Shown here: positions 23,953-26,643 of the stretch, piece after piece
Numbering within the stretch: position 1 is the stretch's first letter
Layout of the letters: every line of letters begins with the position of its first letter
Assembly: GCF_014199615.1 (NCBI RefSeq)
Contig: NZ_JACHOB010000003.1
Location: forward strand, 62,001-126,000
Source of the DNA: Parvularcula dongshanensis
GTDB lineage: Bacteria; Pseudomonadota; Alphaproteobacteria; Caulobacterales; Parvularculaceae
Length of the DNA stretch: 64,000 bases
Direction: 5' to 3'
The notes under the pieces: generated by a model
What the model saw: the letters and a program-made list of their open reading frames with translations, nothing else
What the model was told of the DNA's origin: nothing
The model's database searches: none
Made by a program: the position numbers and the translations under genes

Positions 23953-24483
23953 GCGCGGGGGATGCCGCGAGCGGGCGCGTCTGGCAAGAGCGGGCGACGC
24001 GCAGCCCCGATCGTCCGCCCTCTCTTTTGTGGCGCTACCGGCGGGCTGACCGCCCGCCTGCTTGAGCGCGGGCTGGCGGCACGGGCCTTCGGCCCCGGGC
24101 GCCAGCGGTGCGGGGCAGCGAGATCGGAAGCGAGGCAGCGCTCATCGTCCGCTTGCGCGGTGGTACGATGGTCCGGGGTGTCCCGCGCGCGGCTCGCCGC
24201 AGTTCGGGGAGTAGTGTGGTTGTCTGCGGCGCAAGGGGTCCCAAACCCTCGCCGCGCGCGGCACGAAGTCCTCCACGCTCCTCAGCGCGATCCGCCGGGG
24301 CCGTTCTTCAGCTCACCCGGCGCGTGTCTAACCTGACCAAGTGGGATGCATTCCATCATCCAGACTCGGACAGCACGTGACCTCGTGGCGGCAGGCAGGG
24401 GAGACGTCAGCTGTCCGCCCCGCCCCGGTCCTGCCGCGACGGGGGGAGAATGGCACGGAGCGGAAGGGCGGGGATAAGGTTCC
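23953..24483. other. Long gap with no recognisable gene
   Basis: About 530 bases between the purL start and the repeat element. Short open frames exist on both strands, but none has a family motif, a convincing start or normal codon use. The segment is GC-rich with several short hairpins, for example around 24218-24262. No tRNA or known ncRNA signature was recognised. The purL promoter must lie at its left edge. Confidence 0.5.
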
Positions 24484-25119
24484 CGTCGCCCCGGGCTCGT
24501 CCCGGGGCCCAACACCTGCGCCCTCCGCTAGCGCGGCCTCCCTGGTCCGGCAGGTCCGAGCCGCCGGGCGGCTCGCCATCGTCGCGCTTCGTGGCACCTC
24601 TCGGAGATGGACCCCGGGACGAGCCCGGGGTGACGGTTGGGCTGGCGTAAGCGCGCGAACGGCCACAGCCTTCCGTTCGTGGCCGACAGCTTCGTTACCA
24701 TCATGGCGAACCGGCGGAACGGGACGCTCTACACCGGGGTGACGGGGGACCTGCCGCGCCGGGTGGGGCAGCACCGGGCAGGGGCGGGCTCGACCTTCTG
24801 CGCGCGTTGGGGCTGCACGCGGCTCGTCTGGTACGGACGGTTCGAACGCATCGCGGATGCCATCGCGCACGAGAAGCGGGTCAAGAAGTGGCCGCGCGCC
24901 TACAAGCTGAACCTGATCGAGGCGCAGAACCCCGACTGGCGCGACCTGTGGTGGGACCTCGGCGGCTGGACGGGCTAGCCCCACCGTCACCCCGGGCCCG
25001 TCCCGGGGGTCCATCTCGTGAAGTGTCGGTCGGGTGCGGCGACGCGGAGGCGCGCAAGCGTTACCGCCAAGAGGGTCGAGGGTCCGGCTGTTGGGCCCCG
25101 GGACGAGCCCGGGGCGACG
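24484..25119. repeat. Nested inverted-repeat element enclosing a GIY-YIG gene
   Basis: Four related palindromic units frame the GIY-YIG gene symmetrically. The outer pair is 24484-24514 and 25089-25119: 31 bases, exact inverted copies. The inner pair is 24604-24637 and 24983-25017: 34 and 35 bases, inverted copies with one substitution and one inserted G. Every unit has a core of CCCCGGG-N5-CCCGGGG, itself a small hairpin, flanked by GTC(A/G)C. Within each end the outer and inner units are inverted, so each end can also fold as a large cruciform. The spacers between outer and inner units keep similar edges but are otherwise diverged. This is the layout of paired REP-like elements around a gene. 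Confidence 0.75.
24679..24978 (+). CDS. Small GIY-YIG nuclease-family protein
   Basis: A 99-residue single-domain protein of the GIY-YIG superfamily (the UvrC N-terminal/homing-nuclease fold). Seen are LYTGVTGDLPRRVGQHR, which holds the YIG-type strand and the catalytic-arginine region, then TRLVWYGRF, the Glu in HEKRVKKW, and NPDWRDLWWDL at the end. In most relatives the first motif reads YVYI(L/M); here it reads FVTIMAN, so the first tyrosine of GIY is missing. The start is uncertain: GTG 24679 gives the normal family length, while TTG 24637 lies inside the left inner repeat and ATG 24703 is too late. The gene ends five bases before the right inner repeat. Confidence 0.75.
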   Translation: MADSFVTIMANRRNGTLYTGVTGDLPRRVGQHRAGAGSTFCARWGCTRLVWYGRFERIADAIAHEKRVKKWPRAYKLNLIEAQNPDWRDLWWDLGGWTG

Positions 25120-25198
25120 CGAGCAGGGCGGTCGCGGCGCGCGGCCGCCCGTTCGCGGACAAAGCCTGCTGGCCTATCGCAAGTATGAGAAGCCGGAG
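25106..25198 (+). repeat. Direct repeat, copy A
   Basis: About 93 bases beginning AGCCCGGGGCGACGCGAGC and ending AGCCGGAG. It matches copy B at 26000-26113 in the same orientation, with B carrying extra bases internally. It starts inside the right outer unit of the GIY-YIG element. Together the two copies bracket the beta-barrel gene. The gap 25199-25244 holds nothing recognisable. Confidence 0.6.
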
Positions 25199-25244
25199 CA
25201 CGTCCGCCCTACGAGACGGCCGAGATATGACAATAGCAAACAGC

Positions 25245-25895
25245 TCAGAACCCGAACCTGTAGGCCGCGAGAACGCTTACACCGCCATATCCAACGGTTA
25301 CTTCTGTGTCGCCATCACTTTCGTCAAACCCACCCGTGCCTAGATAAGCAGCCTCGATCCCAAAGCTGTTCGATCCGATGGGGACAGCTACGCCCACCTT
25401 AGCTTGATACCCAATTAGTCCGTCCGCATCGACGTCATCCGCGGTATCCGGCATGATGTAACCGACGCCGCCGCCGACAAAGGGCTCGAACCTGCCGAGG
25501 ATGGGTAAAGTGTAGACCCCGTTCGCCATGAACGCGAAGGTGTCTAGGGAGCCATCGAGATCGATCTTCGAACTTTCGCCGATGTCTTCGCCATCGAAGA
25601 TGAGCCCGACGCCATTAGCTTTCGTCGTGCGATACGTCACTTCCGCCTCGAGCGCGAAACGTGCGGATAGGCGGTGACCATAGAGGGCGCCAATCGCGAT
25701 ACCGGGTTCATAGTCGATGTACGCTGCAACATCATAATTTTCCGATCCCGGCAGAACAGCGTTCGTGTCGAGCGCGTCGTCGGTGACGACGAAGAGTCCG
25801 CCGTGAATCTGCGCATAAGAGCTCGTCTCCTGCGCGGTTGCTGTGCCGGTCAGCGTGATCGATGCTGCCAAAAGAACGGAACTGATGTTTCGCAT
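25245..25895 (-). CDS. Outer-membrane beta-barrel protein
   Basis: A 216-residue small barrel. A signal peptide (MRNISSVLLAASITLTGTATAQ) is followed by alternating amphipathic strands such as GIAIGALYGHRL, FALEAEVTYRT, FEPFVGGGVGYIM and VSVLAAYRFGF. It ends in Phe, as expected for Bam-dependent insertion. It resembles the OmpA-like/OMP_b-brl group; no specific function can be assigned. Base composition is noticeably less GC-rich than the flanking core genes, and the gene is bracketed by direct repeats A and B, so recent acquisition is plausible. Confidence 0.8.
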   Translation of the reverse strand: MRNISSVLLAASITLTGTATAQETSSYAQIHGGLFVVTDDALDTNAVLPGSENYDVAAYIDYEPGIAIGALYGHRLSARFALEAEVTYRTTKANGVGLIFDGEDIGESSKIDLDGSLDTFAFMANGVYTLPILGRFEPFVGGGVGYIMPDTADDVDADGLIGYQAKVGVAVPIGSNSFGIEAAYLGTGGFDESDGDTEVTVGYGGVSVLAAYRFGF

Positions 25896-25999
25896 GCGGG
25901 CCCCAAGGTAACGCGTAGATGAGATGCCGCGTAGGCCCTAGTTTCCGAACGGTTTCTGCTCCCTTAAGCCCGACCGAGATAGCTAGTGCTGAGTGATAT

Positions 26000-26113
26000 A
26001 GCCCCAGGGCGACGCGAGCGGGGCGGTCCCTGCGTAGGGCGGTCGCAGCACGGGGCCGTGCGGCCCGGCGGTTCGTTCGGGAACGGAGCCTCCTGGTCTG
26101 TCGCGAGCCGGAG
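26000..26113 (+). repeat. Direct repeat, copy B
   Basis: It begins AGCCCCAGGGCGACGCGAGC and ends GTCGCGAGCCGGAG, and aligns to copy A with several insertions. The rest of the 25896-26145 gap shows no gene. The 3' end of the AT-rich gene at 26146-26643 abuts this copy. Confidence 0.6.
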
Positions 26114-26145
26114 ATACTGGGGTGGGGCCGCGTAACATGACCGGC

Positions 26146-26643
26146 CTACGAGCGAGGCGAGTCGCTACATTTAGAACCAATAGCCGATGATAAGAAATGT
26201 TCAGTTTCCCGAACTATTTCACTCATTCGATATGTAGCACCATCTTCTTCTGTCAGGAAGATATCGTCGATGAGGAAACCCTCACCAAAATCAGGTCCGA
26301 ACTCACCGTTCTGAACTCGATGGCTGAATACCAACCTTTTCTTTTTGTCGAGATCTCGACCGTGCTTCGTTCCCTCGGCAATATCTTTTATAAACCAAAG
26401 ACATTTATGCTCATCAAGCGCATTCTTTCGCTCTATTAAGAATAGATCTTTACTGGCGCAGATATCCCATAGGTGCCACTCTAGTGTGTGCCAAGCAAGC
26501 ATAGCACAGGTTACTGCGTTACCCGAATGCGAGGGGTTTTCTAGATATGCCTCAAGGCATAGTTGAAACTGATCAAGTAGGTCGGAGGTATCTTTCAGTT
26601 CGAGCGTATAGCTAGTGAAAGTTTTCGTTTCCTCCTCAGACAT
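26146..26643 (-). CDS. AT-rich gene of unknown function, coupled to parE (HEPN-like?)
   Basis: A 165-residue protein that I do not recognise by family. It is mostly helical by composition. Two motifs, AVTCAMLAWHTLEWHLWD and WFIKDIAEGTKHGRDL, recall HEPN-type helical-bundle proteins, where a buried 'A..aWH' helix is followed by an 'ia.g.KH' helix; the RNase motif RxxxxH is not seen, so this is a weak guess. The DNA is strikingly AT-rich against the rest of the window, pointing to transfer. The ATG overlaps the end of parE by eight bases, and a GGAGGAG lies just upstream within parE codons, so translation is probably coupled to parE. The last residues, CSDSPRS, are encoded next to repeat B and may be a repeat-derived tail. 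Confidence 0.65.
   Translation of the reverse strand: MSEEETKTFTSYTLELKDTSDLLDQFQLCLEAYLENPSHSGNAVTCAMLAWHTLEWHLWDICASKDLFLIERKNALDEHKCLWFIKDIAEGTKHGRDLDKKKRLVFSHRVQNGEFGPDFGEGFLIDDIFLTEEDGATYRMSEIVRETEHFLSSAIGSKCSDSPRS

What the first reader, a model, noticed from the sequence alone, without database searches (positions are those of the whole stretch)
23953..26635. Accessory patch between purL and parE
2.7 kb between two core genes holds a long gene-free stretch, several repeats, a nuclease-like gene, a barrel gene and an AT-rich gene. Everything else in the window is tightly packed core sequence, so this is the likely insertion hot spot.
Basis: inference. Interest (0 to 1): 0.5.

Follow-up and report, generated by a model that had tools for sequence, protein, structure and literature searches.

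The report
Repeated structured RNA gene in Parvularcula
The empty-looking DNA between two core genes of this bacterium holds one of about eighteen copies of a folded RNA gene for which we found no description, which seems to travel with small mobile repeats, and beside it sits a nuclease gene wrapped in repeats of its own.

Summary
The "gene-free stretch" matters most. Window 24172-24481 (minus strand) is one of 17 aligned copies (18 model matches) of a ~310-bp unit in this genome. It evolves like a structured non-coding RNA gene: compensatory changes, G-U rather than A-C exceptions on one strand, a promoter-like box, no shared open frame. A covariance model finds 85 matches in 8 of 10 congeneric (Parvularcula) genomes and none in the 52 other family, 289 other order and 384 other class genomes searched. 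Rfam 15 has no match. Copies mostly lie at different places in different species. In 26 of 67 copies a GTAG-type REP end abuts the box, and 4 of 8 (nearly) full-length RAYT transposase genes in the genus are followed within 212-278 nt, same strand, by the RNA. The GIY-YIG gene is bracketed by CGTC-type REPs; 23 of 30 homologues have a shared repeat on both sides, and in three species it lies head-to-head with the RNA. purL-parE adjacency was seen only here. Transcription and function are untested; best read as a component or passenger of REP-type mobile DNA.

The parts
24172..24481 (-). Copy of the structured RNA gene (promoter-like box to 3' end of the conserved core)
   Evidence: 17 own copies aligned; most common unit ends 100-165 nt before and about 160 nt after the core start; covariance-model hit 24176-24326, 118 bits
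24470..24478 (-). Conserved box CTTATCCCC at the 5' end (-35-like); -10-like CCATTCT about 24447-24453
   Evidence: CTTRTCCCC upstream of the core in 52 of 78 copies, 0.34 in shuffled upstream sequence; loose form 67 of 78 against 10 shuffled. A -10-like hexamer exactly 25 nt downstream in 25 of 66 copies (27 of 66 at 22-29 nt, shuffled mean 2.3), but 0 of 17 own copies fit that strict motif
24143..24170 (-). Hairpin just after the conserved core, possible terminator (weak)
   Evidence: Read directly from the sequence; hairpins after the core in 55 of 66 copies but 47.6 in shuffled controls, so not shown
24021..24116 (.). Second repeat module, next to the RNA in some copies and without the full RNA elsewhere
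   Evidence: Matches in L025-L029
24483..24507 (.). CGTC-type REP palindrome E1, within 5 nt of the RNA box
   Evidence: tag, stem, loop and tail compared with PMC3733652
24608..24635 (.). CGTC-type REP palindrome E2 (inverted to E1)
24703..24978 (+). Small GIY-YIG nuclease gene, head-to-head with the RNA
   Evidence: PF01541 E 4.8e-10; matches in 50 of 62 family genomes
24984..25008 (.). CGTC-type REP palindrome E3
25092..25119 (.). CGTC-type REP palindrome E4 (inverted to E3)
25104..25147 (.). Repeat D1 copy 1 (overlaps E4) on one side of the barrel gene
25245..25895 (-). Outer-membrane beta-barrel ORF (216 aa)
   Evidence: PF13505 E 2e-7
25999..26058 (.). Repeat D1 copies 2 and 3 (70-73% identity) on the other side of the barrel gene
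26146..26643 (-). AT-rich ORF without known relatives
   Evidence: No match in Pfam, PHROGs, NCBIfam or PADLOC; none significant among solved structures; no relative in viral contigs; model of low confidence, pLDDT 43

Best explanation
Window 24172-24481 (minus strand) is one member of a multi-copy gene family for a non-coding RNA of roughly 280-300 nt with many paired helices, found so far only in the genus Parvularcula. Shown by sequence: the copy number, the compensatory evolution, the strand preference, the promoter-like box, and the frequent company of GTAG-type REPs and the REP-associated transposase RAYT. Inferred: each copy is transcribed from its own promoter; the RNA gene spreads as a passenger or working part of REP-type mobile units (RAYT with GTAG-REPs), is homogenised by recombination between copies, and helps rearrange the chromosome. 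In the window it sits beside a second REP-type unit, a GIY-YIG nuclease gene bracketed by paired CGTC-REPs. I expect that nuclease to cut the REP hairpins as single-stranded DNA; that step is inferred from recalled work on related enzymes. The interval is probably the join of a rearrangement that separated purL from purQ.
For: RNA: 17 own copies, 79 pairs, 99.5% of cells paired; 74 cells with changes on both sides against 24.6 in shuffles and covariation 0.205 against 0.110, 0 of 500 shuffles reaching either. Genus-wide, 34 copies: 32 of 37 pairs change on both sides, covariation 0.528 against 0.149 shuffled and at most 0.080 when slid. Departures from Watson-Crick pairing on the proposed RNA strand: G-U 124 against A-C 5 (17 copies), 93 against 8 (34 copies). 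Consensus folding z -7.65 on the RNA strand, -4.56 on the other. Box CTTRTCCCC in 52 of 78 copies against 0.34 shuffled. Spread: 85 matches in 8 of 10 genus genomes, 0 of 52 others in the family, 0 of 289 other genomes drawn from the order, 0 of 384 others drawn from the class. No Rfam match at threshold. REP/RAYT link: CCCTAC within 45 nt upstream of the box in 26 of 67 copies, background 1.4% for either orientation per 45 nt, 2.5% for CCCTAC per 50-nt bin; RAYT identified by NF047646; 4 of 8 (nearly) full-length RAYT genes have the RNA core 212-278 nt downstream on the same strand with GTAG-REP sequence between; a strict REP pattern and RAYT occur in the same 6 of 10 genomes, all with the RNA. 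Mobility: a flanking protein shared in only 66 of 3003 locus pairs, several of them within one genome; mechanical ORF 3' of the RNA on the same strand in 9 and on the opposite strand in 8 of 17 own copies. GIY-YIG: shared repeat on both sides in 23 of 30 homologues, 1 of 23 in far flanks.
Against: Two RNA-bearing genomes (G004, G008) gave no RAYT match and no match to the strict REP pattern, so the RNA seems able to persist without them. 41 of 67 copies lack the REP end at the box. In the window itself the neighbouring repeats are CGTC-REPs, not GTAG-REPs. Of the 8 RAYT genes, 2 have the RNA 1.2-1.9 kb away and 2 have no model match near. Some copies keep orthologous places with both flanks shared (mainly G005/G009), so turnover is slow. 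In one search two of the five measures do not clearly beat shuffles: pairs with double changes 13 against 10.4 (24 of 500), pair types 35 against 37.3 (491 of 500). Both structures were derived from, or fitted to, the alignments they are scored on. Two of 17 own copies break a covarying pair (100-217). In 5 of 18 relatives the other strand has the lower single-fold z. The 3' hairpin is not above chance and own copies miss the strict -10 motif. No expression data.
Confidence: 0.62

Rival explanations
1. The RNA is a host regulatory or housekeeping RNA family (a trans-acting sRNA or scaffold) that happened to multiply in REP-rich intergenic DNA; REPs and RAYT are bystanders.
For: Strong structural conservation over the genus; present in two genomes without a RAYT or strict-REP match; some copies at orthologous places; conserved promoter-like box.
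Against: The model finds none in two congeners; copy number varies from 4 to 18; positions mostly not shared; the placement next to RAYT and REP is far above background.
Confidence: 0.22
2. A DNA-level miniature element (MITE-like): the helices matter only as DNA palindromes and no RNA is made.
For: Dispersed, about 310 bp, no shared coding frame; the other strand also folds better than column shuffles (z -4.56).
Against: G-U 124 against A-C 5 on one strand; a promoter-like box at a fixed distance from a -10-like hexamer; a multi-branched structure rather than terminal inverted repeats.
Confidence: 0.1
3. A 5' leader (riboswitch or attenuator) of purL.
For: It lies upstream of purL on the same strand, about 220 nt away.
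Against: Across the 17 own copies the next ORF is in either orientation (9 same, 8 opposite, window included); no model match upstream of purL in the 8 congeners examined.
Confidence: 0.02
4. Only a rearrangement scar that collects unrelated repeats; no functional unit.
For: purL-parE adjacency was seen only here among the 9 genomes where the upstream side of purL could be read (own plus 8); several repeat types and low-GC genes side by side.
Against: The RNA family and the GIY-YIG/REP arrangement recur elsewhere with the same anatomy.
Confidence: 0.1

Closest known systems
GTAG-REPs with REP-associated tyrosine transposase (RAYT / TnpA_REP, REPtrons, REPINs)
   Same: Palindromes with a GTAG end beside RAYT genes, often in inverted pairs; dispersed copies; strict REP pattern and RAYT in the same genomes.
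   Different: A structured RNA gene with its own promoter-like box follows the RAYT's 3' REPs in 4 of 8 loci, and REP-linked RNA copies are scattered. In one search the 12 papers listed of 655 do not describe this by title or abstract start; the other 643 were not seen.
Small RNAs of ISPpu9 in Pseudomonas putida (PMC8450116; only the listing and abstract start seen)
   Same: Small RNAs encoded next to a transposase gene, with the element inserted in REP sequences.
   Different: Those RNAs are described as regulators of one insertion sequence's transposase; here a dispersed RNA family in 4-18 copies per genome. Sequence or structure not compared.
CGTC-REPs (Di Nocera et al. 2013, PMC3733652; abstract and passages read)
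   Same: CGTC tag, 8-bp stem, 5-nt loop and CCA tail in E1; inverted pairs; mostly alphaproteobacterial.
   Different: [quoted passage not shown] here they bracket a GIY-YIG gene, and 23 of 30 homologues share a repeat on both sides. E1 lacks the A-T pairs that paper finds at the stem base.
Ssn family of GIY-YIG single-strand nucleases (recalled; not found in the held library)
   Same: Small GIY-YIG protein whose gene is flanked by its presumed recognition repeats.
   Different: No binding or cleavage tested; head-to-head placement with the new RNA in three species.
Mobile/repeat sequence candidate RNA motifs (class defined in PMC11109978, passages read)
   Same: Structured motif in several copies per genome with inconsistent orientation to neighbours, some beside transposase or nuclease genes.
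   Different: The word Parvularcula does not occur in that paper's main text (supplements not seen); Rfam 15 has no match.
IS200/IS605 omega RNAs and HEARO (recalled)
   Same: A structured RNA next to a Y1-type transposase or nuclease gene.
   Different: No Rfam hit; no guide segment defined; TnpB and IscB genes were not searched for.

Membership tests
RAYT / GTAG-REP system | RAYT protein present in the genome | tested here: met
   NF047646 E 6e-47 for the G005 protein; a 77% identical relative in the own genome at C2:11768-12229. PF01797 scores it below cut-off (E 0.0036), so, which found only G003, missed it.
RAYT / GTAG-REP system | RAYT gene flanked by GTAG-REPs | tested here: met
   GTAG-REP sequence on one or both sides, by eye, in the six loci printed
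RAYT / GTAG-REP system | The RNA unit itself ends in GTAG-REPs | tested here: inconclusive
   26 of 67 copies at the 5' end; no consistent REP at the 3' end
RAYT / GTAG-REP system | RAYT binds or moves the unit | not testable with these tools
   needs biochemistry
CGTC-REP (PMC3733652) | Unpaired CGTC tag, 8-9 bp stem, 4-5 nt loop, CCA tail | tested here: met
   E1 read from the sequence: tag CGTC, 8-bp stem, 5-nt loop, CCA tail; E3 the same with one bulged base (consensus)
CGTC-REP (PMC3733652) | A-T pairs at the first two stem positions ('almost invariably') | tested here: not met
   E1 begins with G-C; E3 has A-T at the first position only (consensus)
GIY-YIG nuclease | GIY-YIG domain above the Pfam cut-off | tested here: met
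   40 bits, cut-off 22.6
Ssn (recalled) | Sequence-specific cleavage of single-stranded DNA at the associated repeat | not testable with these tools
   association only
Rfam families | Match at the gathering score | tested here: not met
   Whole window: only two tRNAs; interval at E up to 5: four matches, all far below gathering scores; 13 relative loci: only whalefall-1 below its cut-off, outside the RNA
Retron or group II intron (RT-dependent element) | Reverse transcriptase in the genome | tested here: not met
   PF00078 gave no match in the own genome; matches in 2 of 10 genus genomes
purL leader | Conserved place upstream of purL | tested here: not met
   no model match in 8 congeners

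The most novel reading that the evidence does not exclude
The RNA is a working part of a REP-type transposition system: a structured partner or guide for a single-strand DNA enzyme (RAYT, or the head-to-head GIY-YIG nuclease). It would be a REP-world counterpart of the omega RNAs of IS200/IS605 elements, made by an RNA gene that spreads with the REPs.
Probability: 0.12. Interest if true: 0.92.

Novelty: new variant of a known kind. Interest (0 to 1): 0.7.

Why it matters
REP elements and RAYTs are widespread bacterial repeats, yet how they are kept and what else travels with them is poorly known. A multi-copy, strongly structured RNA gene tied to RAYT loci would be a new component to test; omega RNAs (recalled) show that RNAs beside Y1-type transposases can be guides. 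[quoted passage not shown] The RNA family would also be a new entry for RNA catalogues.

Tried and rejected
Rejected: purL riboswitch; coding repeat (no frame is stop-free in all 17 own copies); known RNA family; reverse-transcriptase-driven retroelement in this genome. No sign of plasmid or phage origin of the RNA: no match in the plasmid or phage collections, from which near relatives of the own genome may be left out; one exact pattern in viral contigs, none found. First conclusion corrected: (nearest flanks only) suggested almost no shared positions; the wider test found more. First conclusion corrected: (PF01797) suggested no Y1 enzyme in this genome; some searches found the RAYT.

Led nowhere or weak: AT-rich ORF; sequence-only full-length alignment across species (no usable consensus fold); column-shuffle z for A3 (the controls collapse, not used); terminator test (not significant). 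The Ssn paper was not found in the library and is recalled only.

Rows dropped before counts: 78 of 85 model matches were used for flank, box and REP counts (10 of the 17 in G001 were fetched); of these, 67 or 66 had a loose 5' box, of which about 10 would be expected by chance. R1 was built from 17 of 23 copies then in hand, R2 from 34 of the 55 matches. The order and class searches drew a sample of genomes and used stricter filters that lose weak matches, as did the family search, and the three sets overlap. Of 30 GIY-YIG loci, 23 had far flanks on both sides. All 11 close and 4 weak GIY-YIG matches in the genus were checked for the RNA.
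Full report
WHAT IS IN THE INTERVAL. The window lies in a 3.13-Mb genome of 16 contigs. purL and parE are both on the minus strand, and 23953-26635 separates them. 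Reading from purL: a repeat module 24021-24116; the unit 24172-24481; paired CGTC-type palindromes E1 and E2; a GIY-YIG gene (24703-24978, plus strand); palindromes E3 and E4; a barrel gene (25245-25895, minus) between copies of another repeat; an AT-rich ORF (26146-26643, minus).

THE GENE-FREE STRETCH IS A DISPERSED UNIT. A search of the own genome with the interval found 16 other places matching 305-500 nt of the stretch 23983-24485 at 80-93% identity, besides shorter ones. Pairwise comparison of the 17 copies puts most common ends between 100 and 165 nt before, and at about 160 nt after, the start of the modelled core; some pairs share more on either side. The unit begins at the box CTTATCCCC and ends after GGGACACCCCGG. 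No frame is stop-free in all 17 copies.

IT EVOLVES AS AN RNA. The window copy folds better than dinucleotide shuffles on the minus strand (z -2.30) and not on the plus strand (z 0.16). In the alignment of 17 own copies (A1, made by sequence only) 79 pairs give 99.5% paired cells, 74 doubly changed cells against 24.6 in shuffles, and covariation 0.205 against 0.110. Two other measures do not clearly beat shuffles: 13 pairs with double changes against 10.4, and 35 pair types against 37.3. A-C cells, which would be G-U on the other strand, number 5 against 124 G-U on the proposed RNA strand. The structure was predicted on that strand, which favours this count; column-shuffled controls also give the RNA strand the better z (-7.65 against -4.56). 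In 18 single relatives the mean z is -1.60 on the RNA strand and -0.96 on the other; in 5 of the 18 the other strand is lower.

DISTRIBUTION. A covariance model of the 3' half (R1) found 55 matches in 8 of 10 genus genomes. A second model built from 34 of them (R2) gave 85 matches: 18 in G000, 17 in G001, 16 in G003, 10 in G002, 8 in G008, 7 in G009, 5 in G005, 4 in G004, none in G006 and G007. Outside the genus it found none in 52 family genomes, 289 genomes drawn from the order and 384 drawn from the class; the three sets overlap and those searches use stricter filters. An exact pattern in named genomes hit only Parvularcula oceani (6 stretches), whose contig lengths identify G002. On the 34-copy alignment 32 of 37 pairs show changes on both sides, and covariation is 0.528 against 0.149 shuffled and at most 0.080 slid; that alignment was fitted to the model. 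Rfam has no match at threshold.

TRANSCRIPTION SIGNALS. CTTRTCCCC stands upstream of the core in 52 of 78 copies, against 0.34 in shuffled upstream sequence; a loose form in 67 of 78 against about 10. A -10-like hexamer lies exactly 25 nt from the box's first T in 25 of 66 copies; 27 of 66 have it at 22-29 nt, against 2.3 in shuffles. None of the 17 own copies fits that strict hexamer; most have a CCATNCT-like sequence there. Hairpins after the core are common (55 of 66) but not above shuffles (47.6). Transcription is therefore inferred.

PLACES. In the own genome the next mechanical ORF 3' of the RNA is on the same strand 9 times and on the opposite strand 8 times (17 copies). Of 3003 locus pairs only 66 share a flanking protein. 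Several pairs, mostly G005 with G009, share both flanks, so copies are inherited for a time. At L135 (G003) the 5'-side gene matches that of L110/L115 and the 3'-side gene that of L112/L117, which are separate RNA loci in G005/G009; this suggests rearrangement at RNA copies (inference).

LINK TO REP AND RAYT. The protein 5' of the RNA at L018, L110, L115, L156 and L161 is a REP-associated tyrosine transposase (cluster; NF047646 for the proteins of L110, L115 and L161; the others by the matches). Nine places in 6 of 10 genus genomes match it, eight of them over most of its length. In four of the eight the RNA core begins 212, 220, 242 and 278 nt after the matched frame, same strand, with GTAG-REP sequence between. 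In two it lies 1.2 and 1.9 kb away; two have no RNA match near. Over all copies with a box, CCCTAC lies within 45 nt upstream in 26 of 67, against 1.4% of random 45-nt pieces for either orientation. A strict REP pattern occurs in exactly the six genomes with RAYT; it does not cover all REP variants. Against a strict dependence: G004 and G008 have the RNA but no RAYT or strict-REP match.

THE GIY-YIG GENE AND ITS REPEATS. The protein matches in 50 of 62 family genomes. Of 30 homologue loci fetched, 23 carry the same repeat on both sides within 320 nt, and in 17 of these 23 the matched piece itself holds a stem of 6 bp or more; in far flanks the count is 1 of 23 loci that had them. The repeats differ from locus to locus; many, by eye, show the GTCA/CGTC start and CCA end described for CGTC-REPs, which were reported to lack a dedicated transposase (PMC3733652, abstract and passages). 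From recall, GIY-YIG nucleases of the Ssn type act on such repeats; that paper was not found in the held library, so I do not claim this arrangement as new. In three species (own, G002, G005; 65% and 50% identity) the gene lies head-to-head with an RNA copy with palindromes between. The 8 other close matches in the genus (two of them in G007, which lacks the RNA) have no RNA match near. At the G009 locus that shares both flanks with the G005 one the RNA is present and no GIY-YIG match is found.

THE INTERVAL IN RELATIVES. Upstream of purL, 8 congeners show none of the interval's genes and no RNA match; 4 of the 8 have a purQ-like gene there. So the interval is private to this lineage as far as seen and probably joins two formerly separate regions.

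WHAT IT MOST LIKELY IS. A new RNA gene family carried by, or working with, REP-type mobile DNA. Shown: the family, its structure, strand, distribution, and association with RAYT and REP. Inferred: transcription, mobility by RAYT, and any role in transposition or in the host. Literature searches whose listings showed no description of this RNA: (10 listed of 10; 3 of 3; 20 of 32; none; 5 of 5; 15 of 26; 2 of 2; 1 of 1; 15 of 117), 110 (12 of 655); open-licence papers only.

Noticed in passing
window 24021-24116; loci L025-L029, L109, L113: A second repeat module with TGGCGCTACCG occurs elsewhere in the genome without the full RNA; by eye, related stretches are inserted inside the RNA of G005 (L109) and G009 (L113), between its 5' and 3' parts.
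   Followed up: partly
L135 against L110, L115, L112, L117: Flank genes on the two sides of one RNA copy in G003 lie at two different RNA copies in G005 and G009, as if recombination between RNA copies had rearranged the chromosome.
   Followed up: partly
L132 (G003) and L164 (G001): Both flank genes are shared but on swapped sides, i.e. the RNA lies in inverted orientation at what looks like an orthologous place.
   Followed up: no
L074 636-769, L066 2567-2623: Sub-threshold matches to the Rfam whalefall-1 RNA (31-32 bits, gathering score 37) in congeners.
   Followed up: no
window 25104-25147 and 25999-26058: Copies of a repeat (70-73% alike) stand on both sides of the barrel gene, as if that gene had been picked up between repeats.
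   Followed up: no
L238 (own genome, C2:9800-13200): Between the own RAYT and its nearest RNA copy lies about 1 kb that by eye reads like a glycine/aspartate-rich repeat protein, apparently inserted between RAYT and RNA.
   Followed up: no
L239 (G002, C14:67800-72000): By eye, a second, 5'-only RNA copy lies between the RAYT and the full RNA copy.
   Followed up: no
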